Source of the DNA: Actinocatenispora sera
GTDB taxonomy: Bacteria > Actinomycetota > Actinomycetes > Mycobacteriales > Micromonosporaceae
Assembly (NCBI RefSeq): GCF_018324685.1
Contig: NZ_AP023354.1
Location: 3,596,001 to 3,660,000, forward strand
DNA: 64,000 nucleotides
Direction: 5' to 3'
Within the stretch, counting starts at the first letter, position 1. Each line of letters begins with the position of its first letter. The notes beneath the pieces are model-generated. The model ran no database searches and was not told the DNA's origin. It saw only the letters and a list, made by a program, of their open reading frames with translations. Positions 50,076 through 62,103 of the stretch are shown here, piece by piece. The position numbers and the translations under genes are program-made.

Positions 50076-51239
50076 TCAGGGCCGCTCGCGCGGCTTGTCC
50101 ACCACGGCGAACTGCACCGCGCTGTAGTTGCGGATCGTCCCGGCCGGTACGCCGGTGTCGTCGGCGGTGAGGGAGACGATTCGCGTACCCAGGTACTGTC
50201 CGGTCTTCGGATCGAGGATCAGTTCCTGGCGGTCGCCGTAGGCGTCGATGCCGAGCGCGATGCCGCGCTTGCCCGCCAGGTTGGCCACCCGCTCGGTGAC
50301 CTTCAGATCGGGCAGCATGGCGAGCGCCTGGTAGATGGTGGACTCCAGGTCGGCGCTCACCACGCCGCTGCGCAGCAGCATGGTCGCGTTGTGTAGTACG
50401 CGCTGCTCGATGTCCGCGCCCCGGACCGAGTCGCCGTCCGCGGCCCAGGCCAGGAACTTCCGCGGGTCGTTCGGTACCTTCCTGGCGATCAGGAACTTGT
50501 TCGGCTCCTTTTTCACCTCGTTGTCCAGGCAGGACTGGGTGCCGCCCTGCTCCGCGTGATGGAAGTCGCCACAGGTGGCCGTCGCCCAGGCCGGTGGCTC
50601 GCCGAAACCGCCCTTCGCGAACTTGCCGTGCTTGGCGATCGTCTTCTTGTCACCGACGACCCACTGGTCCTTGCCGATCCGGGTGAAGTGCTGGGTCCAG
50701 GTGCCCGCCTGGTCGTAGGGGATCCAGGTCTCGAGCTGCGTCTTGCGCCGGTAGGAGAGGCTCCACGTGGTGTCGGCGGTGGTGTACAGGTCGGAGCTGA
50801 TCTCCTTGACGTACAGGTACTGGCCGGGGCCGGGCTGGACCGGCTTGAACGTCCGGACCTTCGCCGCCGCCGCCCGCATGGCGTCGCCGCCCGGTACGGT
50901 CGCCACGGTCGTCTTCGCCGGCGCAGCCTTGTGCTTGTGTTGCGGTGAGTGCGCGCCGAACGGGCCGGTGAAGGCGACCGCAGCGGCCGCGACGACGGCG
51001 ACACCGGCGGCGACCGCCCCGTACGCCCAGCGTCGGGTGCGAGCCGGCCGCGGTGGCGGGGCGTCGTGGCCGCGCGAGGCGGTGAGCATCGGTACGCCCT
51101 GGTGCGCCAGCGCGTCGTCCAGGGTGGCGCGGGCGGTGCCAAGCTGCCCGGCCTCGTCGGTGTGCAGCGCGTCGAGCGCCCGGTCCAGGTCCTCATCCGT
51201 CCACAGTGGACGGGCTGGTTCGGTACGGTGGTCAGTCAT
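50076..51239 (-). CDS. CU044_5270 family protein, ECF sigma partner
   Basis: The 387-residue protein has a cytoplasmic N-terminal region (WTDEDLDRALDALHTDEAG), one membrane segment (WAYGAVAAGVAVVAAAAVAF) and a large extracytoplasmic domain ending GVPAGTIRNYSAVQFAVVDK, the CU044_5270 family pattern. Its gene overlaps that of the sigma factor by 8 bp, so it is co-expressed. It probably acts as a membrane-bound regulator of that sigma factor, as in related actinobacterial pairs; this is inferred from context. Confidence 0.8.
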   Translation of the reverse strand: MTDHRTEPARPLWTDEDLDRALDALHTDEAGQLGTARATLDDALAHQGVPMLTASRGHDAPPPRPARTRRWAYGAVAAGVAVVAAAAVAFTGPFGAHSPQHKHKAAPAKTTVATVPGGDAMRAAAAKVRTFKPVQPGPGQYLYVKEISSDLYTTADTTWSLSYRRKTQLETWIPYDQAGTWTQHFTRIGKDQWVVGDKKTIAKHGKFAKGGFGEPPAWATATCGDFHHAEQGGTQSCLDNEVKKEPNKFLIARKVPNDPRKFLAWAADGDSVRGADIEQRVLHNATMLLRSGVVSADLESTIYQALAMLPDLKVTERVANLAGKRGIALGIDAYGDRQELILDPKTGQYLGTRIVSLTADDTGVPAGTIRNYSAVQFAVVDKPRERP

Positions 51240-51852
51240 CGGTGCCGTCCTCGTCGTGCAGGGTCGTGGTGGGGCACTGGCGGCGCAGCCAGCGGCGGGT
51301 CCGGTGCAGGCGGGAGCGCACGGTGCCCGACGGGATGCGCAGCACCTGGCCGATCTCGGTGGCGTCCAGGCCGGCCCAGCTGGTCAGCAGCAGCACGTCC
51401 CGGTCGCCCGGCGACAGCTGGCTCAGCGCCGCGGCGAGCTGGCCCACCTGGTACGCCGCGTCCACCCGCTCGCCGACCGCGTCGGCGTGGTCGATGCCGG
51501 ACGTGCCGCCGGCGGCCAGTCGCGCAGTGGCCCGGAACCTGCGCATTTCGGTGCGCTCGTGTTGCTTGAGAAGGTTGCCGGCGATGCCGTAGAGCCACGC
51601 CCGGATGCCGGCCCGGTCCGGGTCGTAGCTGGCCCGGCGGCGCAGCGCGGCGAGGAACGTCTCGGCCACGATGTCCTCGGCGGTCGCCGCGCCGACCCGA
51701 CGGGCCAGGTATCGCTGCAGCCCGGGGCCGTGTTCGGCGAACAGCCGGCCGAACCGTTCGGTCAGCGCGGTGTCGGTGAGCGCGGCGAGGTTGGGCCGGT
51801 CCAGGTCGCCAGCGTCGGATTGCACCGGCGATGCGCCGGCGGGGCTGGTCAT
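51232..51852 (-). CDS. ECF-type RNA polymerase sigma factor
   Basis: The 206-residue protein has sigma region 2 (LQRYLARRVGAATAEDIVAETFLAAL, GIRAWLYGIAGNLLKQHER) and region 4 (LSQLSPGDRDVLLLTSWAGL, IPSGTVRSRLHRTRRWLRR), with the short linker of extracytoplasmic-function sigmas. It lacks regions 1 and 3. It is co-encoded with a CU044_5270 membrane protein that probably controls its activity. Target promoters are unknown. Confidence 0.9.
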   Translation of the reverse strand: MTSPAGASPVQSDAGDLDRPNLAALTDTALTERFGRLFAEHGPGLQRYLARRVGAATAEDIVAETFLAALRRRASYDPDRAGIRAWLYGIAGNLLKQHERTEMRRFRATARLAAGGTSGIDHADAVGERVDAAYQVGQLAAALSQLSPGDRDVLLLTSWAGLDATEIGQVLRIPSGTVRSRLHRTRRWLRRQCPTTTLHDEDGTDD

Positions 51853-51967
51853 CTGTGCACCACGTCCTTCCTCCCGTCGATCCTGATGTCGGTCACACTG
51901 CTTGTTCGCCGCAGCATCAGCAGGTGTTCACGACGCGTGGACCGGACGGGCGCTGCCCGTGCCGAGC

Positions 51968-53296
51968 TCAGTCGGCCCCGGCGTCGTCGGGGGCCGGCGC
52001 GGCCCGCAGCGCGACGGCGACCACGCCGGCGGCGATCATGAACCCGCCGACCACCCACAGCCCGGCCTTCTCGGTGCCGGTCGCGTCGGTCAGCCAGCCG
52101 GTGACGTACGGCCCGGCGAACCCGGCCAGGTTGCCCAGCGAGTTGACCAGCGCGATGCCGCCGGCCGCGGCGGCGCCGGTGAGGAACATGGTCGGCAGCG
52201 GCCAGAACGTCGGCAGCGCCGCGCAGATGCCCATCGTGCACACGGTCACCGCGATCATCGTGGTGAACGGGGACTGCAGGTACAGCGCGACCGGGATCGC
52301 GACGCCGCCGACGACCGCCGGGATCGCCACGTGCCACACCCGCTCACCGGTACGGTCGCCGTGCCGCGCCCACAGCACCATCGCCACGCAGCCGAACGCG
52401 TACGGCACGGCGACGATCAGGCCCTGCTGGAACACCGTGTAGCTGGTGTGGAAGGTGCCCTGGAAGCCGGCGATGATGGTCGGCAGGAAGAAACCCACCG
52501 CGTACAGGCCGTAGACGATGCCGAAGTAGACGAACGCCAGCGCGAGCACCCGGGGGTGCCGCAGCGCCCGGCGCAGCGGAACGTGGTAGCGCTGGCCCGT
52601 CCGCTCGTGCTCGGCGTCCATCTCGCGTTGCAGCCAGTCACGCTCGTCGGCGGCGAGCCAGCGGGCCTGGCTCGGCCGGTCGGTCAGGTAGAACCAGCAG
52701 GCCACCCCGACCACGATCGCCGGCAGCCCCTCGACCAGGAACATGAACCGCCAGCCGGACAGGCCGAACAGCACGTCGTGCCCGGTCGAGATCAGCCACC
52801 CGGACAGCGGCGAGCCGATCATCGACGACAGCGGCACCGCGAGCATGAAGAACGCGACCGCCTTCGCCCGCTCCCGCTTCGGGAACCAGAACGTGAGGTA
52901 CAGGATGATGCCCGGGAAGAAGCCGGCCTCCGCGACGCCGAGCACGAAGCGCAGCAGGTACATGGTGCCGGCGTTGGGTACGAAGGCCATCGCCGAGGCG
53001 ACCACGCCCCAGCTGACCATGATCCGGGCCAGCCAGCGGCGCGCGCCGAACCGGTGCAGCGCGAGGTTGCTCGGTACCTCCAGCACCAGGTAGCCGATGA
53101 AGAACAGGCCCGAGGCCAGGCCGAAACCGGCCTTGCTGAAGCCGAGCGCCTCGTTCATGCCGTGCGGCGCGGCGAAGCTGATGTTCGTCCGGTCCAGATA
53201 GTTGATGAAGTAGAGCAGGATCAGAAACGGCGACAGCCGCACCGCCACCTTGCGCATCACCTGGCGCCGCAGCGCGATCCGGTCCGTTGCCACCAT
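51968..53296 (-). CDS. MFS transporter, anion:cation symporter (ACS) type
   Basis: The 442-residue protein has 12 predicted membrane segments, the ACS start RLSPFLILLYFINYLDRTNI and GVAEAGFFPGIILYLTFWFP in the fourth helix. The usual substrates are organic anions such as phthalate, tartrate or glucarate. ATG at 53294-53296 follows GGGGAG. Immediate neighbours do not show a catabolic pathway for it, except that the hydroxyproline operon is about 0.8 kb away on the same strand. Confidence 0.9.
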   Translation of the reverse strand: MVATDRIALRRQVMRKVAVRLSPFLILLYFINYLDRTNISFAAPHGMNEALGFSKAGFGLASGLFFIGYLVLEVPSNLALHRFGARRWLARIMVSWGVVASAMAFVPNAGTMYLLRFVLGVAEAGFFPGIILYLTFWFPKRERAKAVAFFMLAVPLSSMIGSPLSGWLISTGHDVLFGLSGWRFMFLVEGLPAIVVGVACWFYLTDRPSQARWLAADERDWLQREMDAEHERTGQRYHVPLRRALRHPRVLALAFVYFGIVYGLYAVGFFLPTIIAGFQGTFHTSYTVFQQGLIVAVPYAFGCVAMVLWARHGDRTGERVWHVAIPAVVGGVAIPVALYLQSPFTTMIAVTVCTMGICAALPTFWPLPTMFLTGAAAAGGIALVNSLGNLAGFAGPYVTGWLTDATGTEKAGLWVVGGFMIAAGVVAVALRAAPAPDDAGAD

Positions 53297-53447
53297 GCCG
53301 GCTCCCCGCGCTCGGCCGGGTGGCCAGCCCGCCCGGCACCGATACGAACGGGCGTCAACCTAGCACGCTCGCCGGACCGCCGGCAGCGGCGCGAACGGCA
53401 CCCTGGCCGAGGCCCCGGCGGGTCACGGACGGGGGTGTGCGGTGCCC

Positions 53448-53969
53448 TCAGCGGTGCCGGCCGGACACCGCCAGCGCGCGGCCGAGGCACAGCAGCGCCG
53501 CGACGGAGGCGAGCGTGCGAACCACGTTCCAGGCCAGCCACGGGGTCCGGATGCGGTCGATCACCGGGCCGGCGTGGGCGGGCGCGACGGCGGCGAGCTG
53601 CTCGTTGAGCGGGATGTCGCCGACGATCGTGGCCCCGAAACCGACGAGGTACAGCCCGAGCGCGGCCAGCGCGAACAGCGCCGCGGCGCCGTTGCCGCGG
53701 CGCCACTGCTGCGTCCCGGCGATCGCGGTGACCACCAGCGCGCCGAAGAACGCCGCGAAGAACACCGGGTTCTCGATGGACTCGTTGATCCGGTCCAGCG
53801 CCTCCGCGAAGGTGGCGTCCGACGCGCGGGACAGGCCGGGGATCACGGCGACCTGGAACGCGAAGTACACGCCGGCGACCAGGCCGACGCTCAGCAGCGA
53901 CAGCATCAGCATCGTGGTGCCGGAGGTGGCGTACCGGCGGGTGCGGGGCGGGGTCGTCGAGATCGTCAT
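53448..53969 (-). CDS. DUF1772 (anthrone oxygenase-like) membrane protein
   Basis: The 173-residue protein has four membrane helices and the DUF1772 features GVYFAFQVAVIPGLSRASD and FFAAFFGALVVTAIAG with a C-terminal WNVVRTLASVAALL. Some relatives are called anthrone oxygenases, but most are of unknown role. I use ATG at 53967-53969, which sits in CATGACGTCAG, the same 11-mer found at the start of the ribbon-helix-helix gene (25432-25442). Confidence 0.8.
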   Translation of the reverse strand: MTISTTPPRTRRYATSGTTMLMLSLLSVGLVAGVYFAFQVAVIPGLSRASDATFAEALDRINESIENPVFFAAFFGALVVTAIAGTQQWRRGNGAAALFALAALGLYLVGFGATIVGDIPLNEQLAAVAPAHAGPVIDRIRTPWLAWNVVRTLASVAALLCLGRALAVSGRHR

Positions 53970-54076
53970 GACGTCAGTCCACCGTACGGCGGGACGCCGG
54001 GCCATGGTCACGACGCTCAGCCGCATGCGTGCGCGTCTCGGCGCGGGGCCCGGCTCCGCCCGTGCACGCGTCCCGA

Positions 54077-54110
54077 CCGCCCGGGGCCGACCGCGCTCGG
54101 CCCCGGGCGG
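54077..54110. terminator. Terminator of the hydroxyproline operon
   Basis: A perfect 14-bp stem (54077-54090 with 54097-54110) closes a 6-nt loop, 3 bp after the stop of the last gene (54114 on the minus strand). Confidence 0.75.
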
Positions 54111-54113
54111 GGC

Positions 54114-55115
54114 TCAGAGCACGAAGCCGTGCGGGAACGGGTCGGTCGGGTCGAGCAGGTAGGTGGCGGTACCGGTGATCCAGGCCCGGCCGGAGAACTC
54201 CGGCACCACCGCCGGCACGCCGCCGACCTCGCTGGTGCGCAGCAGCCGGCCGGTGAACCGGGTCCCGATGAAGGACTCGTTGACGAAGTCGGTGTCGAGC
54301 GCGAGCTCGCCGCGGGCGTGCAGCTGGGCCATCCGGGCACAGGTACCGGTGCCGCACGGGGACCGGTCGAACCAGCCCGGGTGGATCGCCATCGCGTTGC
54401 GCGAGTGCCGCGCGTCCGAGCCCGGCGCGAGGAACTGCACGTGCTTGCAGCCGGACACGTCCGGATCGGTCGGATGCACCGGCCGGCGCTGCACGTTGAT
54501 GCTGTCCATGATGGACAGTCCGGCGGCCAGGATCTCGCCCTTGCGGGCCCGGTCGAACGGCAGGCCGATCCGCTCGATCGGCAGGATCGCGTAGAAGTTC
54601 CCGCCGTAGGCGAGGTCGTAGCGCACCTCGCCGAGCCCCGGCACCTCCACGGCGGCGTCCTGCTCCAGGCAGAACGCGGCCACGTTGCGCAGCGTGACCT
54701 GCTGTACCGCGCCGTCCCGGACCGCCACCCGAGCGATCACCAGCCCGGCCGGGGTGTCCAGCCGAACCACCGTCTCCGGCTCCGTGACCGGCACCATGCC
54801 GGTCTCCACCAGTACCGTGGCGACCCCGATGGTGCCGTGCCCGCACATCGGCAGGAACCCGCTGACCTCGATGTACAGCACGCCCCAGTCGGCGTCGTCG
54901 CGGGTCGGCGGCTGCAGGATCGCCCCGCTCATCGCGCCATGCCCGCGGGGCTCGTCGACCAGGAACCGGCGCAGCTCGTCCAGGTGCTCCATCGCGTACC
55001 GCCGGCGCTGCGCCATGGTGGCGCCCGGGATCGGTGCCACCCCACCGGTCACGACCCGGGTCGGCATGCCCTCGGTGTGCGAGTCGACCGCGGTGATGGC
55101 GCGTGCGGCCCGCAT
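54114..55115 (-). CDS. 4-hydroxyproline epimerase (proline racemase family)
   Basis: The 333-residue enzyme converts trans-4-hydroxy-L-proline to cis-4-hydroxy-D-proline. Both catalytic cysteines are present, in PMCGHGTIGVA and SPCGTGTCARMAQL, which excludes the trans-3-hydroxyproline dehydratase subgroup (Thr or Ser at the second). The start AVDSHTEGMPTRVV is typical. It shares one base with the stop of the upstream deaminase gene. It is the last gene of the operon. Confidence 0.88.
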   Translation of the reverse strand: MRAARAITAVDSHTEGMPTRVVTGGVAPIPGATMAQRRRYAMEHLDELRRFLVDEPRGHGAMSGAILQPPTRDDADWGVLYIEVSGFLPMCGHGTIGVATVLVETGMVPVTEPETVVRLDTPAGLVIARVAVRDGAVQQVTLRNVAAFCLEQDAAVEVPGLGEVRYDLAYGGNFYAILPIERIGLPFDRARKGEILAAGLSIMDSINVQRRPVHPTDPDVSGCKHVQFLAPGSDARHSRNAMAIHPGWFDRSPCGTGTCARMAQLHARGELALDTDFVNESFIGTRFTGRLLRTSEVGGVPAVVPEFSGRAWITGTATYLLDPTDPFPHGFVL

Positions 55116-56032
55116 CAGGACTCCCGTAGCGCCGCGATCGCCCGGTCCAGGTCCGCGGTGAGCTGCTCGATGTGCGCGGCGGTCAGCGGGCCGCGCGGCG
55201 GTCGGCACGGCCCGCCGAACCGGCCGATCCGGTCCAGCCCGAACTTGATCGCCTGAACGAACTCGGTGCGGCTGTCCCAGCGCAGCGTCGCGACGATCGG
55301 CTCGTACAGTGCCCGCGCCTCGTCCAGCTTGCCGGCCGTGGCGAGCGCGTACAGCCGGCTCGTCTCGGCCGGGAACACGTTGGGGAACCCGGCGAACCAG
55401 CCGGTGGCGCCCATCAGGACCGCCTCCAGCAGGACGTCGTCGGCGCCGGCCACGACCTGCAGGTCCGGGGCGTGCTCCTTGATCTCCAGCACCCGGCGCA
55501 CGTCGCCGGAGAACTCCTTGACCGCGACCACGTTGTCGATCGCGGCGATCTCGCCCAGCAGCCGCGGCGTCAGGTCCACCTTCGTGTCGTACGGGTTGTT
55601 GTAGACCATCACCGGCAGCCCGACCGCGGCGACCGCCTGGTAGTGCGCGATCACCTCGGACTCGTTCGCCCGGTACATGGTGGGCGGCAGGCACAGCACG
55701 CCGGCCGCGCCGTCCTCGGCCGCGGCCTCGGCCCAGCGCACCGCCTGGTGGCTGCCGACGCCGTGCACGCCGACGATGACGGTCGCGTCCGCACCGACCG
55801 CGGCGATCGCGGTCCGCGCCACCCGGCGGCGCTCCTCGTCGGTCAGCGACGAGTACTCACCGAGCGACCCGTTCGGGCCGACCCCGTCGCAGCCGTTGTC
55901 CACCAGCCACCGGCAGTGCTCGGCGTAGGCGTCGAAGTCGAGCGCGAGGCCGGCCGGTGCGCCGGCCTGCTCGCGGTAGAACACCGGCGTCGCCACCACG
56001 ACACCACCCAGTCCACGCGTCGTGTTCTTCAC
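55115..56032 (-). CDS. DapA-family lyase/deaminase, likely 1-pyrroline-4-hydroxy-2-carboxylate deaminase
   Basis: The 305-residue protein is of the dihydrodipicolinate synthase family: GVGPNGSLGEYSSLTDEE, the Tyr of VMVYNNPYDTKV and the Schiff-base Lys of VVAVKEFSGD. In hydroxyproline catabolism a DapA-type enzyme deaminates and dehydrates the pyrroline product to alpha-ketoglutarate semialdehyde. GTG at 56030-56032 follows AAGGAG. Its position between the oxidase and epimerase genes supports this assignment over true DapA, whose genes lie elsewhere. Confidence 0.85.
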   Translation of the reverse strand: MKNTTRGLGGVVVATPVFYREQAGAPAGLALDFDAYAEHCRWLVDNGCDGVGPNGSLGEYSSLTDEERRRVARTAIAAVGADATVIVGVHGVGSHQAVRWAEAAAEDGAAGVLCLPPTMYRANESEVIAHYQAVAAVGLPVMVYNNPYDTKVDLTPRLLGEIAAIDNVVAVKEFSGDVRRVLEIKEHAPDLQVVAGADDVLLEAVLMGATGWFAGFPNVFPAETSRLYALATAGKLDEARALYEPIVATLRWDSRTEFVQAIKFGLDRIGRFGGPCRPPRGPLTAAHIEQLTADLDRAIAALRES

Positions 56033-57522
56033 GGGTTCTCCTTGTCCGGTACGGGTTGCGGCGGCGCAACGTCCGGTGCGGTGGACGCGGCAAGCTCGCC
56101 GAGACGGATCGGTTGGGCGATGGGGCGGTGGTACGGGCTCGCGCGGCGGGCACCGTCGTCCGGCCGGTCCAGGCCGTCGCTGCCGGGAGGCGGGGCCCCG
56201 AGCGCGCGCAGCGCCGCCACCGTCGGTCCGCAGATGCGACCCTGGCACGGGCCCATCCCGGCCCGGGTACCCAGTTTCGACACCCGCGGATCCTGCCCGG
56301 CGGCGGCCCGCAGCGCGCCGTAGCAGACCTCCTCGCAGCGGCAGACCACGGTGTCGTCGCGCAGCCAGTCCGGCCAGGCGGGCCCGATCGGGTGCGCGGC
56401 GGCCAGCCGGGTGGCGAACCGCCGGCCCGCGGCGACCTGGCGGCGCAACGCCCGTACCGCCGGGCGGTCCGGTCCGCCGGCGGCGAGCCAGCCGGCGAGC
56501 GCGCCCTCGGCCCGAGCGGCCGGTGCGCCGGCGATGCCGGTGAGCTCGCCCACCGCGTACACCCCGGGGCGGCTGGTGCGCAGGTCGGTGTCGACAGCGA
56601 CGAACCGGCGGCCGTCCGGCTCGGTCCGCAGCGCGCAGCCGGCGGCGACGGGCAGCTCCAGCTGCGGCGTGAACCCGTGCCCGACGCACGCCGCGTCGAC
56701 CGCGACGGTGCGCTCGCTGCCCGGTACCACCGACCAGTCGGCGCGCAGCCGGGCGGTGACGACCTCCTCGACCCGGCCGTCGCCGCGAGCTTCGACCACG
56801 GTACGGCCCAGCAGCACCGGAACCCGGTGCCGAGCCAGCGTCGCCGCGTACTCGGCGAGTTCGGGCAGCTTGCCGGCCTGCCCAGCGAGCTGCCACGGCC
56901 GGGCGCCCCAGCCGGCCGCGATCCGGCCCGGCCGGTTCGCCTCCAGCACCTGCCGGACGGTCGAGCCGGCACCGAGCAGCGCGGCGGCCACCGGCAGCAG
57001 GAACGGGCCGGTCCCGGCGACCACGACGCGATCGCCGATGGCCACCCGCTCGCCCTTCACCAGCGCCTGCGCGGCGCCGGCGGTGACCACCCCGGGCAGC
57101 TCCCAGCCGGGGAACGGCAGCATCGTGTCGTGCGCGCCGACCGCGAGCACCAGCGCGTCCGACTCGATCACCCGCCGCCGGCGGTCGGCACCGTCCGCCT
57201 GGCCGGTGAGCACGTGCACCAGCGGTGGCCCACCGCGCGCCGGCGTCGCGCCGGGGTCCTCCAGCGCCCACACCGTGGTCTCCGGCAGGAACCGGCAGCG
57301 CGGATGGCTCAGCACGTGGTCGCGCCGGGCGGCGAAATCGCGCCAGCCGTGCTGCAGCGCCTCCCGCCGCGCCACGCCGAACTCGGCGACCGGTGCCCGG
57401 TGGTACTGGCCGCCCGGCTGCTCGGCCGCCTCGATCAGGGTGACCTGCGCACCGGCGCCGAGTGCGGTGGCCGCCGCGGACAGCCCGGCCGGCCCGGCCC
57501 CGATCACCACCACCCGCGTCAC
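56029..57522 (-). CDS. D-hydroxyproline dehydrogenase subunit, FAD/[2Fe-2S] (HcnB-like)
   Basis: The 497-residue flavoprotein has the FAD motif VVVIGAGPAGLSAAATAL, a second nucleotide fold (VVVAGTGPFLLPVAAAL), and a C-terminal BFD-type [2Fe-2S] domain with four cysteines (VCRCEEVCYGAL and GMGPCQGRICGP). It is the alpha subunit of the three-component D-amino-acid dehydrogenases (octopine/nopaline oxidase and hydroxyproline dehydrogenase type). The next gene in the operon starts within its stop (GTGA). Confidence 0.87.
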   Translation of the reverse strand: MTRVVVIGAGPAGLSAAATALGAGAQVTLIEAAEQPGGQYHRAPVAEFGVARREALQHGWRDFAARRDHVLSHPRCRFLPETTVWALEDPGATPARGGPPLVHVLTGQADGADRRRRVIESDALVLAVGAHDTMLPFPGWELPGVVTAGAAQALVKGERVAIGDRVVVAGTGPFLLPVAAALLGAGSTVRQVLEANRPGRIAAGWGARPWQLAGQAGKLPELAEYAATLARHRVPVLLGRTVVEARGDGRVEEVVTARLRADWSVVPGSERTVAVDAACVGHGFTPQLELPVAAGCALRTEPDGRRFVAVDTDLRTSRPGVYAVGELTGIAGAPAARAEGALAGWLAAGGPDRPAVRALRRQVAAGRRFATRLAAAHPIGPAWPDWLRDDTVVCRCEEVCYGALRAAAGQDPRVSKLGTRAGMGPCQGRICGPTVAALRALGAPPPGSDGLDRPDDGARRASPYHRPIAQPIRLGELAASTAPDVAPPQPVPDKENP

Positions 57523-57842
57523 CGGTCACCGTCCCCGTCGGCCGGTAGGCGGGTCTGGGTGGTGACCGCGTCACCGTCGCGGGCGCGGCGCCGGCAGGCG
57601 CGCACGTCCGGGACGCCGTTGACGGTGACCAGGCAGTCGAAGCACACCCCGATGCCGCAGAACACTCCCCGGCCGGCGCCGGCGTGCCCGTACCGCCAGG
57701 CGGTGCGGGCGGCGGCGAGCAGCACGCCGGCGATCGACTGCCCGGCGACCCCGGTCACCGGCGTGCCGTCCACCGTGATGGTGACCGGCCGGTCGTCGCG
57801 GTCGAGCACGTCGTCGTCGGGCCGGATCAGCCTGGGGGTCAT
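57519..57842 (-). CDS. D-hydroxyproline dehydrogenase small [2Fe-2S] subunit (HcnA-like)
   Basis: The 107-residue protein carries a plant-type ferredoxin cluster: GVFCGIGVCFDCLVTVNGVP then C at DVRAC, the C-x4-C-x2-C-x11-C spacing of HcnA/SoxA-like gamma subunits. It transfers electrons between the two flavin subunits. It overlaps both neighbouring genes by 4 nt. Confidence 0.87.
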   Translation of the reverse strand: MTPRLIRPDDDVLDRDDRPVTITVDGTPVTGVAGQSIAGVLLAAARTAWRYGHAGAGRGVFCGIGVCFDCLVTVNGVPDVRACRRRARDGDAVTTQTRLPADGDGDR

Positions 57843-59194
57843 CGCAGCCCTCCGATCGCGGACCGGTTGGGGGAGAAGGGAACCGGGTCGATCGGTGGGG
57901 TGCGGCCGCAGATCAGGTCGGCGAGGATCCGGCCGGTGCCGACCGACAGGCCGATGCCCGCACCCTCGTGCCCGGTGGCGTGCCACAGCCCGGGCAGCCG
58001 CCCGTCCGCCCCGATCACCGGCAGGTGGTCGGGAACGAACGGCCGGAACCCGCCGTACGCCCGCATCACCGGCACCCCGGCGAGGCCCGGGAACAGCCGG
58101 AGCGCCTTCGCCGCGATCGCCGACCAGACCGCGACCGGCATCGCGTCGGCGAACCCGACCCGGCGCCGCGACGAGCCCAGCAGTACGGTGCCGCCGCGGG
58201 TCGACTCGACCACCGCCGAGGTCTGCACCGCCGCCTCGTCGCTCGCGACCGCGCCGACGTAGTCCGCGTCGTACACCTTGTGGAACACCGTCGGTGGCTG
58301 CGGCGTCGTGACGAGCACCTCGCCGCGGCGCGGCCGGACGTCGATCGGGGCGCCCAGCGCGGCCGACACCGCGCCGGCCCACGGGCCGGTCGCGTTCACG
58401 AACGCGTCGCCGCCGACCGTGCCGTGCTCGGTGCGTACCGCGGCCAGCCGGCCGCCGGTGCACACCGGGCCGGTGACCGCGCAGCCGGTCCGCAGTTGCG
58501 CGCCGGCCGCGACCGCGTCGCCCAGCAGCAGGGTCGCCGCGCCGGCCGGCTGCACCTGCGCGTCGTCCGGGTAGTGCACTGCGGCGGTGTACTCCCGGGT
58601 CAGGTGCGGCTCGGCCGCGCGCACGGCGTCGTCGTCCAGCTCGACCGCGGTCACCCCGGCCGCCCGCTGCGCCGCGGCGAACGCCGCCAGCGCGGTGGCA
58701 CCGGCCGCGGTCGTGGCCACCACGATGCCGCCCTTCGGCTCCCACTCGGCGACCTCGGCCTCGGCGCGGGGTGCCCGCCGGCCGGGGCCGCCAGCGCCGG
58801 CGGCACTGCGTCTGCTTGCACGTCCGGCGGCGCCGGCTCGGCCCGCAGCGTCGCTGCTGCCCGCTCGGCCGGCGGCGTTTGCGTGGCTGGCTCCGCCGGC
58901 GGTGTTCGCGTGGCCGGCTCCGCCGGCGGTGTTCGCGTGGCCGGCTCCGCCGGCGGGGAGGGAGCCGGTTCGCGGCTCGGCGAGTACCTGCGGCCACAGG
59001 TCGCGGGACAGCTGCGCGAGGGCCAGCTCCGGGCCGGGTTCCTTGTCGGAGATCAGGATGTTGCCCTCGCCGTGCGAGGTGGTCCCGGCCGCGGCGCCGC
59101 CCCGGTCGAGCAGCACCACCTCGCAGCCCGCCCGGGCCAGCTCGCGGGCGCACGCGGCGCCGATGATGCCGGCACCGATCACCACCACCCGCAT
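57839..59194 (-). CDS. D-hydroxyproline dehydrogenase FAD subunit (DadA-like)
   Basis: The 451-residue protein has the FAD motif VVVIGAGIIGAACARELA and a DAO-type domain with GGFRPFVPDHLPVIGADGR and GHEGAGIGLSVGTGRILADL. It is the catalytic subunit that oxidises cis-4-hydroxy-D-proline (or D-proline-like substrates). A Gly/Ala/His-rich insertion of about 60 residues, partly 9-residue tandem repeats (GGAGHANTA), lies after the first third. ATG at 59192-59194 follows GGGAGG. It is the first gene of the operon, with the CGTTCG operator directly upstream. Confidence 0.86.
   Translation of the reverse strand: MRVVVIGAGIIGAACARELARAGCEVVLLDRGGAAAGTTSHGEGNILISDKEPGPELALAQLSRDLWPQVLAEPRTGSLPAGGAGHANTAGGAGHANTAGGASHANAAGRAGSSDAAGRAGAAGRASRRSAAGAGGPGRRAPRAEAEVAEWEPKGGIVVATTAAGATALAAFAAAQRAAGVTAVELDDDAVRAAEPHLTREYTAAVHYPDDAQVQPAGAATLLLGDAVAAGAQLRTGCAVTGPVCTGGRLAAVRTEHGTVGGDAFVNATGPWAGAVSAALGAPIDVRPRRGEVLVTTPQPPTVFHKVYDADYVGAVASDEAAVQTSAVVESTRGGTVLLGSSRRRVGFADAMPVAVWSAIAAKALRLFPGLAGVPVMRAYGGFRPFVPDHLPVIGADGRLPGLWHATGHEGAGIGLSVGTGRILADLICGRTPPIDPVPFSPNRSAIGGLR
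58871..58951 (-). repeat. In-frame 3 x 27-bp repeat in the oxidase gene
   Basis: Units at 58871-58897, 58898-58924 and 58925-58951; the last two are identical. They code for 9-residue units of the form GGAGHANTA in a low-complexity insertion. Confidence 0.8.
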
Positions 59195-59203
59195 GGAGCC
59201 TCC

Positions 59204-59237
59204 CGTTCATTAAACCGAACGATCCGAGGGTACAACC
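59204..59237 (-). promoter_or_regulatory. Promoter and operator of the hydroxyproline operon
   Basis: On the minus strand TTGTAC (59232-59237), 17 bp and TAATGA form a promoter just before the Shine-Dalgarno of the oxidase gene. CGTTCA-TTAAAC-CGAACG (59204-59221) overlaps the -10 and spacer. The same motif stands twice upstream of the XRE-cupin regulator gene. Confidence 0.65.
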
Positions 59238-59311
59238 GGGCCACGGTCGATGTCACGCGGCAAGCGCGTTCCGCTCGCCGAACGACGAACTGCGGACGGA
59301 TCGGCTGCCGG

Positions 59312-59896
59312 TCAGTGCGGGGTGATGGTCGCCCCGGCGCGGTCCGGCCGGTACTGCAGGAGCAGCACCGAGCGCACCTCGCCGTCGGGCGCCTCGTAGC
59401 TGTGCGGCACGGTCGCATCGAACCGGATGTAGTCGCCGGCCTCCAGCCGGGTGATCCGGCCGTCCAGATGTACCAGCAGCGTGCCGACCTGCACGCTGGT
59501 GTGCTCGATGCCGACATGGCCGTCCGAGTCCTGCCGCCGGCCGGCCCGAACCCGCTGGTCGTAGAGCTCGACGATGCTCTCGCCGGTCTCCAGCCGGGAC
59601 AGCGGCCGCAGATCGACGCCGGCGCCGCGCAGCACCTCCACGTCGGCGCCGCGGACCACCGTGGGCTCGGCCGTACTGGCGTCGAGCAGGTCCGAGATCG
59701 GCATCCGCAACGTCCGCGACAGGCTGAACACGGTCTCGATGGTCGGGTTGCCGGCGCCGGATTCCAGCTGCGACAGGGTCGCCTTGCCGATGCCGGACAA
59801 CCGGGACAGTTCGGAGATCGACAGGCCCAGGCCGGACCGGGCCCGCCGCAGGTTCGCGGCCAGGTGACCCCGGATCGACCCGTCCGACGCGTGCAC
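59312..59896 (-). CDS. XRE-cupin transcriptional regulator of hydroxyproline use
   Basis: The 194-residue protein has an N-terminal XRE helix-turn-helix (LRRARSGLGLSISELSRLSGI then GKATLSQLESGAGNPTIETV) and a C-terminal cupin (VGTLLVHLDGRITRLEAGDY, PHSYEAPDG). Such regulators bind small amino-acid-like ligands in the cupin. GTG at 59894-59896 follows GGGAGG. Its gene is 117 bp upstream of the hydroxyproline operon on the same strand, and both promoters carry CGTTCG-N6-CGAACG. Confidence 0.87.
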   Translation of the reverse strand: MHASDGSIRGHLAANLRRARSGLGLSISELSRLSGIGKATLSQLESGAGNPTIETVFSLSRTLRMPISDLLDASTAEPTVVRGADVEVLRGAGVDLRPLSRLETGESIVELYDQRVRAGRRQDSDGHVGIEHTSVQVGTLLVHLDGRITRLEAGDYIRFDATVPHSYEAPDGEVRSVLLLQYRPDRAGATITPH

Positions 59897-59908
59897 CGTC
59901 GCCTCCCC

Positions 59909-59962
59909 CGTTCGCTTCACCGTACGCACCGGGGCCGCGCGCCCCGTTCGTTCCACCGAACG
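59909..59962 (-). promoter_or_regulatory. Two CGTTCG-type operators upstream of the regulator gene
   Basis: CGTTCG-TTCCAC-CGAACG (59945-59962) is a perfect inverted repeat, and CGTTCG-CTTCAC-CGTACG (59909-59926) has one change; they are 36 bp apart. Together with the copy at 59204-59221 they define the motif CGTTCR-N4-AC-CGAACG. Confidence 0.65.
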
Positions 59963-59985
59963 ATACCGCGCCCGCCCCGAGCAAA

Positions 59986-60045
59986 GTTGATCAAGGGATC
60001 CGGTCACGTCGTCCCAGGAGGCAGCGCCACGATCCCTTGATCAAC
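59986..60045. terminator. 15-bp inverted repeat GATCAAGGGATC downstream of argS
   Basis: GTTGATCAAGGGATC (59986-60000) and GATCCCTTGATCAAC (60031-60045) are perfect complements around a 30-nt loop. It lies between argS and the regulator gene, both on the minus strand, so it can act as the argS terminator. The arms are themselves partly palindromic (TTGATCAA), like a small interspersed repeat. Confidence 0.6.
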
Positions 60046-60047
60046 GC

Positions 60048-60115
60048 GGCTCCTCGACCGGGGCGGCTCCTCGACCGGGGCGGCTCCTCGACCGGGACGG
60101 CTCCTCGACCGCGGC
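60048..60115. repeat. Tandem array, 4 x 17 bp
   Basis: Units start at 60048, 60065, 60082 and 60099 (GGCTCCTCGACCGGGGC; the first two are identical). The array follows the inverted repeat and ends 30 bp before the argS stop. Confidence 0.85.
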
Positions 60116-60144
60116 GGCGCCGCGATCGAGGCGGCAGGGCGGGG

Positions 60145-61926
60145 TCACAGGCGGTCGGGGGCCGGCAGGCCGAGCAGCGACAGTCCCTGCGCGAGGGTGC
60201 GGCGGGCGAGGTCGCACAGCGCCAGCCGGTTGGTGCGCACCGGCTCCGCGGCCCCGAGTACCGGGCAGCTCTCGTAGAAGGCGGTGAACGCGCGGGCCAG
60301 CTCGTACAGGTAGCCGCACAGCCGGTGCGGCTCCAGCGACTCGCCCACCTCGGCCGCCACCGCACCGAACCCGTCGAGCGCCAGGACCAGCGCGCGTTCC
60401 GCCGCCGACACCGGTACCGCCGGGTCGAGGGCCGGTGCGTCCGCGAGCTTCGCCGGGTCTGCGGCGCGACGCAGGATCGCGGCGACGCGGGTGTGCGCGT
60501 ACAGCAGGTAGACGCCGGTGTTGCCGGTGAACGCCACCATCCGGTCCGGATCGAACCGGTAGTCCTGTTGACGCGAGGTCGCCAGGTCGGCGTACTTGAC
60601 GGCGGCGATCCCGCACAGCTCGGCGATGCGGTCGGCCTCGGTGCCCGGCATTGCCGGGTTCTTCGCCTGCACCACCCGGCGGGCGCTCCGGACCGCGGCG
60701 TCGAGCAGGTCGGTCAGCAGCGCGGTACCGCCGTCCCGGGTGCGAAACGGCCGGCCGTCGGCGCCGAGCACCGTCCCGAACGCGATGTGCTCGACGTCGA
60801 CGGTGTCGGGTAGCCAGCCGGCCCGACGAGCGGCGGCGAACACCTGCCGGAAGTGCAGCGCCTGCCGGGCGTCCACCACGTACAGCACCCGGTCCGCGTG
60901 CAGGCGACCGACCCGGTCCCGTATGGTGGCCAGATCCGTTGCGGCGTAGCCGAATCCGCCGTCGCTCTTGCGCACGATCAGCGGCACCGGCGCGCCGTCG
61001 CGGCCGGTGAACGCGGGGTCGAACACGCACAGCGCGCCGGCGGAGGGCACCGCGATCTCCTGCCGTACCAGCTCGTCGACCACGCCCGGCAGCGCGTCGT
61101 TGTAGCGTGACTCGCCGGCCGCGTCCGCCTCGGTGAGCAGCAGGCCGAGCCGGTCGAACACCTGCTGGAAGGCGTGCTGTGACTCGGCGACGATCTGCCG
61201 CCAGACCGCCAGCGTGTCCGGATCGCCGGACTGCAGCGCCACCACCCGCGTGCGGGCCCGGCCCGCGAACGCCGGATCGGCGTCGAATGCGGCCCGGGCC
61301 ACCCGGTACAGCTCGTCCAGGGCGGCGACGGCGGTGGTGCCGGCGGCCAACCGCTCGTGCTGCCACGGCGCCTCGGGATGCTCGAGCAGGTACTGGATCA
61401 GCATCCCGAACTGGGTGCCCCAGTCGCCCAGGTGGTTCTCCCGGATCACCTCGGCGCCGAGGAAACCCAGCACCCGGACCAGCGCGTCGCCGATCACCGT
61501 CGATCGCAGGTGCCCCACGTGCAGCTGCTTGGCCACGTTGACCGACGGGTAGTCCACGACGGTACGCACCCCGGCCTGCGGGGTGCCCACGCCGAGCCGG
61601 TCGTCGGCCAGCCGCGCGGCGACCTGACCCCACAGCGCCGCATCGGTGAACGTGACGTTGAGAAACCCGGGCCCGGCAACGGAAACGGTCGCAGACAGCC
61701 CGCCGGGGTTCGCGGTCAGCTGCTCGACGAGCCGACCGGCGAGTTGCGCCGGTGACCGGTGCGCCGCGCCGGCGAGCGACAGGGCCGCGTTCGACTGGAC
61801 GTCCACGCCGGGGCGGTCGGAGCGTCGGATCAGCGGGTCGGCGTCGCGTCGTTCCGGCAGCACCGCGCCGATCGCGGTACCGACTGCCTGTTCCACCTGC
61901 TGCGCGAGCGACGCCACGCCGGTCAT
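60145..61926 (-). CDS. argS: Arginyl-tRNA synthetase
   Basis: The 593-residue class I synthetase charges tRNA-Arg. It has the N-terminal tRNA-binding domain, the HIGH-like motif HVGHLRST within SVNVAKQLHVGHLRSTVIGD, ENHLGDWGTQFGMLIQYL, the KMSKS-equivalent GRPFRTRDGGT, and the anticodon-binding domain with KYADLATSRQQDYRFDPDRM and the C-terminal LCDLARRTLAQGLSLLGL. ATG at 61924-61926 follows GGAGGAGACC. It is not beside lysA or thrA, the usual actinomycete context of argS, so it may be a second, acquired copy. Confidence 0.92.
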   Translation of the reverse strand: MTGVASLAQQVEQAVGTAIGAVLPERRDADPLIRRSDRPGVDVQSNAALSLAGAAHRSPAQLAGRLVEQLTANPGGLSATVSVAGPGFLNVTFTDAALWGQVAARLADDRLGVGTPQAGVRTVVDYPSVNVAKQLHVGHLRSTVIGDALVRVLGFLGAEVIRENHLGDWGTQFGMLIQYLLEHPEAPWQHERLAAGTTAVAALDELYRVARAAFDADPAFAGRARTRVVALQSGDPDTLAVWRQIVAESQHAFQQVFDRLGLLLTEADAAGESRYNDALPGVVDELVRQEIAVPSAGALCVFDPAFTGRDGAPVPLIVRKSDGGFGYAATDLATIRDRVGRLHADRVLYVVDARQALHFRQVFAAARRAGWLPDTVDVEHIAFGTVLGADGRPFRTRDGGTALLTDLLDAAVRSARRVVQAKNPAMPGTEADRIAELCGIAAVKYADLATSRQQDYRFDPDRMVAFTGNTGVYLLYAHTRVAAILRRAADPAKLADAPALDPAVPVSAAERALVLALDGFGAVAAEVGESLEPHRLCGYLYELARAFTAFYESCPVLGAAEPVRTNRLALCDLARRTLAQGLSLLGLPAPDRL

Positions 61927-62103
61927 ACCCGGTCTCCTCCGGTCCGTCGAGAAACCGCCAGCGTGCCACACCGCGCCCCGCCGTACCGCCGAGTTTCGGC
62001 CCGTCGAAACCGGCATCCCTGTCACCGCCGGTGGGTCGCGGCGCGCGCTCCGGTGCCTGGGGAACGGAGCGGTTCGCGGTCGGCGTCGAGCCAGAACCGG
62101 ACC

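What the first reader, a model, noticed from the sequence alone, without database searches (positions are those of the whole stretch)
59204..59962. Three-site regulon motif for hydroxyproline catabolism
CGTTCR-N6-CGAACG occurs at the operon promoter (59204-59221) and twice before the XRE-cupin gene (59909-59926, 59945-59962). With the three-subunit dehydrogenase, DapA-type deaminase and epimerase, this defines a complete, self-regulated pathway whose control by an XRE-cupin protein differs from the regulators usually described.
Basis: partly seen in the sequence, partly recalled or inferred. Interest (0 to 1): 0.55.

Follow-up and report, generated by a model that had tools for sequence, protein, structure and literature searches.

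The report
Hydroxyproline operon with XRE-cupin repressor
A soil actinobacterium probably switches its genes for eating hydroxyproline (a collagen amino acid) on and off with a type of repressor not known to us from this pathway, and the DNA switch sites are strikingly conserved where that repressor gene sits beside the operon.

Summary
The motif is real, with one correction: 59204-59221 and 59945-59962 fit exactly; 59909-59926 has one mismatch. In 86 related actinobacterial loci the palindrome (consensus CGTTCGNTWWANCGAACG) lies within one mismatch before the operon in 79 of 81 and before the XRE-cupin gene in 75 of 86; control stretches gave none. At the operon it follows a TTGACA/TANNNT promoter at a fixed distance in 72 of 79 (shifted controls 0), so it should cover the transcription start: repression. 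In 80 loci chosen by the epimerase, all 7 with the XRE-cupin neighbour have a high-scoring palindrome at the operon promoter; of 73 without it none does, though one has a low-scoring exact match there. 65 of the 73 carry a GntR gene instead. So the site follows the XRE-cupin gene, not the pathway. In this genome the regulon looks local; no site was found at two candidate semialdehyde dehydrogenase genes. Binding, repression, inducer and substrate are inferred. New member of the known kind 'XRE-cupin local repressor', in the role of the GntR regulator HypR of Streptomyces coelicolor.

The parts
59312..59896 (-). XRE-cupin regulator, 194 aa (GTG start), HTH about 11-70, cupin about 124-173
   Evidence: Pfam HTH_3 46.7 bits (cut-off 23), Cupin_2 31.0 (27.2); AlphaFold2 pLDDT 88, helices then beta barrel; 60-97% identity to 43 relatives
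59945..59962 (-). operator 1 before the XRE-cupin gene, exact
   Evidence: a site within one mismatch in the 130 bp before this gene in 75 of 86 loci
59909..59926 (-). operator 2 before the XRE-cupin gene, one mismatch (CGTACG half), next to its presumed ribosome-binding site
   Evidence: a CGTACG half recurs in many Streptomyces and Amycolatopsis loci
59204..59221 (-). operon operator, exact, just before the ATG (59194) of the first gene and over the predicted transcription start
   Evidence: placement after -35/-10 in 72 of 79 loci
59227..59232 (-). predicted -10 element TACCCT of the operon
   Evidence: conserved position relative to the operator
59251..59256 (-). predicted -35 element GTGACA of the operon, 18-bp spacer
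59267..59284 (-). possible fourth, weaker operator copy upstream of the -35; also in L035 (one mismatch) and L007 (two mismatches), both of this genus
57839..59194 (-). dehydrogenase subunit, FAD oxidoreductase (DAO family), 451 aa with a low-complexity insert
   Evidence: Pfam DAO 216.6 bits; 27-bp tandem repeat
57519..57842 (-). dehydrogenase subunit, 2Fe-2S (Fer2_4), 107 aa
56029..57522 (-). dehydrogenase subunit, Pyr_redox_2 flavoprotein, 497 aa, Fer2_BFD match under cut-off
55115..56032 (-). DHDPS-family protein, probable pyrroline-4-hydroxy-2-carboxylate deaminase; Lys172 in VAVKEF
54114..55115 (-). proline-racemase-family protein, probable 4-hydroxyproline 2-epimerase, with the Cys pair Cys91 and Cys254
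53448..54026 (-). small protein of the Anthrone_oxy family, possibly in the operon in this genus; role unknown
51968..53296 (-). MFS transporter, candidate importer; among the loci a relative was found only in L035 (Actinocatenispora comari)

Best explanation
The XRE-cupin protein is a local repressor of the adjoining hydroxyproline catabolic operon and of its own gene. A dimer binds an 18-bp palindrome. At the operon the palindrome starts 5-6 bp after the -10 element, over the transcription start, so binding blocks initiation; at its own gene one or two copies give autorepression. A small molecule of the pathway, bound in the cupin barrel, would release it. The operon then makes the epimerase, the three-subunit D-hydroxyproline dehydrogenase and the deaminase. 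In this lineage the protein takes the role that a GntR repressor (HypR) has in S. coelicolor and probably in most other sampled actinobacteria. Shown by sequence: genes, sites, conservation, promoter placement, covariation of site and XRE gene. Inferred: binding, dimer, repression, inducer, substrate.
For: Site before operon 79 of 81 and before XRE gene 75 of 86 within one mismatch; three sets of control stretches 0 of 86, 0 of 81, 0 of 80. A matrix built from the sites finds 4 further places in 1.44 Mb of the same loci. -35 and TANNNT stand at a fixed place before the operator in 72 of 79, shifted controls 0 of 79. Domain make-up and fold. Described XRE-cupins of Pseudomonas act this way (PMC7901475, PMC12724383; passages seen).
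Against: No binding, expression or growth data. One window site is imperfect, and at the XRE gene's own promoter site and -10 have no fixed spacing. Five of 86 XRE loci lack a same-strand operon; three of them still have a site behind the XRE gene. The epimerase stays below the cut-off of its best NCBIfam model (340 against 376 bits), and no model names the DHDPS-type protein a hydroxyproline enzyme.
Confidence: 0.78

Rival explanations
1. The palindrome is bound by another regulator (for example a GntR protein or a global factor) and the XRE-cupin gene is merely one of its targets.
For: Many loci have a GntR gene within the stretch (30 of 36 and 35 of 37 loci without XRE). Palindromes of the same form occur beside other regulators: an amidase-like gene, with a TetR-type gene in some, and an IclR-type gene next to an aldehyde dehydrogenase. 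L215 has an exact loose match before DAO without an XRE gene.
Against: High-scoring sites are there when the XRE gene is there and not when only GntR is there. HypR has a different box (TACAATGTCAC in its own promoter, PMC6608401), which stands before GntR genes in a number of loci and is absent from the window operon. Sites are too few for a global factor.
Confidence: 0.08
2. The XRE-cupin protein binds the sites but acts as an activator or as a dual regulator.
For: An activating XRE-family regulator (NceR) is cited in PMC12724383; the sites before the XRE gene are placed variably.
Against: At the operon the site lies over the predicted start in 72 of 79 loci, where a bound protein blocks polymerase; the XRE-cupins of Pseudomonas aeruginosa are described as inhibitors (PMC7901475, passages).
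Confidence: 0.08
3. The operon serves another imino acid (for example D-proline, trans-3-hydroxyproline or a betaine) and the regulator senses that.
For: The epimerase scores almost equally with a 4-hydroxyproline epimerase and a proline racemase model (340.1 and 339.5 bits), both below cut-off; some members of the superfamily are promiscuous (PMC4113996, passages).
Against: The Cys/Cys pair fits an epimerase or racemase, not the trans-3-hydroxyproline dehydratase (PMC4113996); the company of dehydrogenase and DHDPS-family deaminase fits the 4-hydroxyproline route (PMC4113996); the like gene set of S. coelicolor is induced by hydroxyproline and its epimerase gene is needed for growth on it (PMC6608401).
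Confidence: 0.1

Closest known systems
HypR (SCO6294) regulon of Streptomyces coelicolor, GntR/FadR family (PMC6608401)
   Same: Represses itself and a predicted five-gene operon with the same parts: three-subunit dehydrogenase, deaminase, epimerase; semialdehyde dehydrogenase gene not beside the operon.
   Different: Regulator of another family (GntR, zinc-binding) with another box (CTNTGC(A/C)ATGTCAC) and targets elsewhere (collagenase, 2-oxoglutarate dehydrogenase).
XRE-cupin local repressors of Pseudomonas: PsdR, PauR, ErfA, PA0535 (PMC7901475) and DbuR (PMC12724383)
   Same: HTH plus cupin, palindromic sites at the promoter, repression of the neighbouring metabolic genes, autoregulation reported or suspected in some.
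   Different: Other pathways (such as polyamines and D-branched-chain amino acids) and, for DbuR, another palindrome; the word hydroxyproline does not occur in PMC7901475.
HypR of Sinorhizobium and other Proteobacteria (PMC5343134)
   Same: Regulator of hydroxyproline genes, in S. meliloti a repressor with 4-hydroxy-L-proline as inducer; autoregulated in 32 of 46 genomes studied there.
   Different: GntR family, in Proteobacteria.

Membership tests
XRE-cupin transcription factors | N-terminal Cro/CI-type HTH followed by one C-terminal cupin barrel | tested here: met
   HTH_3 46.7 bits (cut-off 23), Cupin_2 31.0 (27.2); predicted helices 8-71 then beta barrel; best structure match 1y9q, an HTH_3 regulator
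XRE-cupin transcription factors | palindromic sites at the promoter of the neighbouring metabolic operon | tested here: met
XRE-cupin transcription factors | autoregulation (site before its own gene) | tested here: met
   75 of 86 loci within one mismatch; presence of sites only, not activity
XRE-cupin transcription factors | binds as dimer and represses; released by a metabolite | not testable with these tools
   needs EMSA, reporter and mutant
HypR hydroxyproline regulators (GntR/FadR) | GntR DNA-binding domain | tested here: not met
   window regulator is HTH_3 + Cupin_2
HypR hydroxyproline regulators (GntR/FadR) | HypR box at the operon | tested here: not met
   no match within one mismatch of TGC(A/C)ATGTCAC in window 51001-62000
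4-hydroxyproline catabolic operon (epimerase route) | epimerase of the proline racemase superfamily with two catalytic Cys | tested here: met
   Pro_racemase 428 bits; Cys91 (MCGHGT) and Cys254 (SPCGTGT); best NCBIfam model is 4-hydroxyproline epimerase but under its cut-off
4-hydroxyproline catabolic operon (epimerase route) | dehydrogenase or oxidase for D-hydroxyproline and DHDPS-family deaminase | tested here: met
   families; activity not tested
4-hydroxyproline catabolic operon (epimerase route) | alpha-ketoglutarate semialdehyde dehydrogenase in the operon or regulon | tested here: not met
   not in the operon; two candidates elsewhere, C1:2378587 and C1:5435431, have no site in the flanks held (top matrix scores 3.1 and 2.4); whether either is the enzyme is not known

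The most novel reading that the evidence does not exclude
XRE-cupin control has replaced GntR control of hydroxyproline catabolism more than once in actinobacteria, and in some Streptomyces the two repressors share one single-copy pathway: in two genomes (L049 S. griseofuscus, L102 S. malaysiense) the XRE site stands before the dehydrogenase genes, while a GntR gene with a HypR box stands beside the deaminase, epimerase and semialdehyde dehydrogenase genes. The dehydrogenase step would then be gated on its own, perhaps by an intermediate rather than by hydroxyproline itself.
Probability: 0.35. Interest if true: 0.55.

Novelty: new member of a known kind. Interest (0 to 1): 0.4.

Why it matters
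It gives a regulator, a binding site and a one-operon target for an XRE-cupin in actinobacteria; the paper searches made here listed none tied to hydroxyproline. It is a clean natural experiment in regulator replacement: like enzymes, either with a GntR gene or with an XRE-cupin gene and a different operator, and a few genomes with both. What each repressor senses becomes testable side by side; for HypR no effect of L- or D-hydroxyproline on DNA binding was seen in vitro (PMC6608401).

Tried and rejected
Wide regulon in this genome: rejected. The refined pattern CGTTCRNTNNANYGAACG with up to one mismatch gives the three window sites and one place in a coding-like frame. Of the ten other exact places of the looser pattern nine are inside coding-like frames; one (C1:6306346, score 15.3) lies 54 bp before a short frame and was not followed. 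Semialdehyde dehydrogenase: two candidate genes have no site.

Other genomes: the refined pattern without mismatch occurs in 30 of 40 genomes of XRE-type loci; the other ten have only imperfect sites. In 3 of 40 a match stands between an IclR-type and an aldehyde dehydrogenase gene (families searched for L128 only); I read it as the IclR protein's own site, which is not proven. In 15 of 40 a palindrome of the form CGTTCGTTCRARCGAACG lies elsewhere; 9 of the 15 were looked at: eight adjoin an amidase-like gene, three of them also a TetR-type gene (names by eye, no family search); treated as another regulator's site. Two single sites (G212:C6, G228:C1:7046255) were not followed.

Rows dropped or not independent: one search kept the best 80 of 209 relatives. 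L006 (same contig as L035) and L008 (same place as L077) were left out. Five of 86 loci without a same-strand operon (L079, L082, L085, L109, L110) are outside the operon count. The matrix was built on the loci, so one search is partly by construction. The 40 Micromonosporaceae loci are 40 of 80 hits, picked so as to include the four XRE-type ones outside this genus; the 40 class-wide loci are 40 of 109 hits, mostly from the top of the identity ranking. The preset score of 20.4 was missed by one XRE locus (L229, 19.2); among the 73 without XRE the highest scores are 20.0 (L191, more than 5 kb from the genes) and 18.7 (L232, 976 bp before DAO). In one search L156 is labelled 'neither' only because that locus is short; its genome has the XRE gene (L007). 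Some GntR hits lie up to 13 kb from the enzyme genes, and HypR itself was not among the queries, so 'HypR-like' is inference.

The -15 half-match over the start codon in Streptomyces may only reflect conserved first codons. The general promoter scan found nothing. HypR boxes within one mismatch occur in 18 of 36 Micromonosporaceae loci without XRE, 0 of 4 with it, and 14 of 81 of the XRE set; no chance level was computed, so this is weak. The structure model has pTM 0.60, so domain placement is unsure; after 1y9q the listed matches are mostly cupin enzymes, first HppE, which also aligns over most of its length.

Papers: abstract and passages of PMC6608401; passages of PMC7901475, PMC4113996, PMC12565409, PMC5343134, PMC12724383, PMC5144071, PMC9739823; all others only in search listings. 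The library lacks most subscription journals.

Full report
What is there. On the minus strand an XRE-cupin gene (59896-59312) is followed by an FAD oxidoreductase of the DAO family, a 2Fe-2S protein, a Pyr_redox_2 flavoprotein, a DHDPS-family protein and a proline-racemase-family protein, then a small Anthrone_oxy-family protein and an MFS transporter. The five enzyme genes overlap their neighbours by 1 to 4 bases, which fits one operon. The genome is 7.04 Mb in one contig; the nearest named relative seen is Actinocatenispora comari (97% on the regulator). The epimerase has both cysteines (Cys91, Cys254), which in this superfamily separates epimerases from the dehydratases with one Cys and a Thr (PMC4113996, passages).

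The sites. Two of the three reported sites match exactly and one has a mismatch; a fourth near-copy lies at 59267-59284. Exact sites of this form occur at 12 places in the genome, so two within 760 bases are not chance. Nine of the ten others lie inside coding-like frames.

Conservation. One scan for relatives of the regulator kept 80 of 209 loci, from Actinocatenispora, Streptomyces and near relatives, Actinomadura, Actinoallomurus and Amycolatopsis. The DAO gene is in 75 of these 80 and the epimerase in 66; several loci end early. Over 86 loci (79 more of these, L035, five Micromonosporaceae loci and the window) the best match to CGTTCR-N6-YGAACG before the XRE gene is exact in 25 and one off in 50; before the operon (81 loci) exact in 66 and one off in 13. 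Three sets of control stretches from the same loci gave no match within one mismatch (0 of 86, 0 of 81, 0 of 80), shuffles about 0.3%. After thinning near-copies the counts are 49 of 59 and 40 of 42. The consensus is CGTTCGNTWWANCGAACG. A weight matrix from these sites finds four other places in 1.44 Mb: three just behind an XRE gene whose operon is not there, one inside an XRE gene.

Does the site follow the regulator or the pathway? Loci were then chosen by the epimerase. In Micromonosporaceae 80 of 200 genomes have it; 40 were taken, the four XRE-type ones outside the genus among them. These four have the site (scores 23.4 to 29.5), 34, 54, 23 and 29 bp before the DAO start; of the 36 without XRE none reaches 20.4 (highest 20.0, more than 5 kb away). 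In a class-wide sample 109 of 393 genomes have the epimerase; 40 were taken, mostly the most similar. Three have the XRE neighbour, with operon sites scoring 30.4, 23.8 and 19.2; 37 have not, highest score 18.7, 976 bp before DAO. The 19.2 site misses the preset 20.4, but it is a TGTTCA-N6-TGAACA palindrome right behind TTGACG and TACCCT. With the looser pattern the picture is less clean: a site within one mismatch in the 300 bp before a pathway or regulator gene is found in 6 of 7 XRE loci and in 6 of 73 others; of those six, four are before GntR genes with scores of 5 or less, L244 has one before DAO scoring 2.0, and L215 has an exact match 57 bp before DAO scoring 15.2. No relative of the regulator at E 1e-15 was found in the genome of L215 (G026). 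A GntR protein like that of L102 is in the stretch in 30 of 36 and 35 of 37 of the loci without XRE.

Promoter anatomy. Relative to the operon operator, TANNNT begins at -12 or -11 and a TTGACA-like hexamer near -35 in most of 65 thinned promoters. With at least 4 of 6 in the -35 and a 16-19 spacer, 72 of 79 promoters fit, and 0 of 79 at either shifted position. In the window it is GTGACA-N18-TACCCT (59256-59227), and the operator starts 5 bp later, over the expected start point. That is the place of a repressor. DbuR, an XRE-cupin of Pseudomonas putida, protects a palindrome with the predicted -10 element (PMC12724383, passages). At the XRE gene's own promoter no such fixed spacing was seen.

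The regulator. The model shows an HTH domain and a cupin barrel (pLDDT 88, pTM 0.60); the best structural match is 1y9q, a Vibrio cholerae HTH_3 regulator, followed by HppE epoxidase, a cupin enzyme. In 44 sequences the recognition region (KATLS..E.G.GNPTIETVF) is invariant, and so are His127, Glu131 and His165 of the barrel, which by recalled cupin motifs would be three of the four usual metal ligands. A metal-dependent pocket is a guess.

History. In an epimerase tree of 109 sequences XRE-type operons fall in two places: one clade of 69 rows (67 XRE, one with both regulators, one short locus; support 100/96) among GntR-type operons, and a pair (L199, L204; 100/98) elsewhere. The XRE label needs at least three changes; the tree is unrooted, so the direction is not shown, and sampling was uneven, XRE loci coming mainly from a regulator search. 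In two Streptomyces genomes (L049, L102) one epimerase (E 1e-60) and one DAO-type subunit (E 1e-40) were found; the dehydrogenase genes carry an XRE site with one mismatch, while the deaminase, epimerase and semialdehyde dehydrogenase genes lie beside a GntR gene with a TACAATGTCAC box just before it. That looks like split control of one pathway.

Limits. In this genome the refined motif with up to one mismatch gives the three window sites and one place in a coding-like frame. Binding, repression, inducer and substrate are inferred.

Comparison. It works like, and by domain make-up is, an XRE-cupin local repressor (PMC7901475). It is not a HypR, although it seems to hold HypR's role (PMC6608401). 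The paper searches listed no XRE-cupin linked to hydroxyproline; two listed papers that hold both words were opened at those words and bear on neither (PMC5144071, PMC9739823). The library lacks most subscription journals.

Noticed in passing
58859-58956: A 27-bp tandem repeat (3.6 copies, 91% match) codes a low-complexity insert in the FAD subunit (451 aa here; frames of 399 aa in L049 and L102).
   Followed up: partly
60046-60135: A 17-bp tandem repeat (5.3 copies, 90% match) lies between the XRE-cupin gene and the arginyl-tRNA synthetase-like gene.
   Followed up: no
L079 8989-13306: In Streptomyces sp. 150FB a second XRE-cupin of this group stands before oligopeptide-type ABC transporter genes, about 17 kb from the copy at the operon (L103); it may control uptake.
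   Followed up: partly
L082, L085, L109, just behind the XRE gene: XRE-cupin genes without the operon that still keep a site behind them; the epimerase of these genomes lies outside these loci. They may be remnants of a lost operon.
   Followed up: partly
L139, L140, L142, L147 position 1501-1518: A longer perfect palindrome (ATCGTTCGTTCGAACGAACGAT) by an amidase-like gene, with a TetR-type gene on the other side in L139 and L147, recurs in Actinomadura; apparently an unrelated operator.
   Followed up: partly
L128, L131, L138 position 1501-1518: A GTTCGATATACTGAAC palindrome (either strand) between an IclR-type gene and an aldehyde dehydrogenase gene in three Streptomyces.
   Followed up: partly
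L215 13466-13483: Exact CGTTCR-N6-YGAACG match 57 bp before a DAO-type gene in a genome without this regulator; low matrix score, meaning unknown.
   Followed up: no
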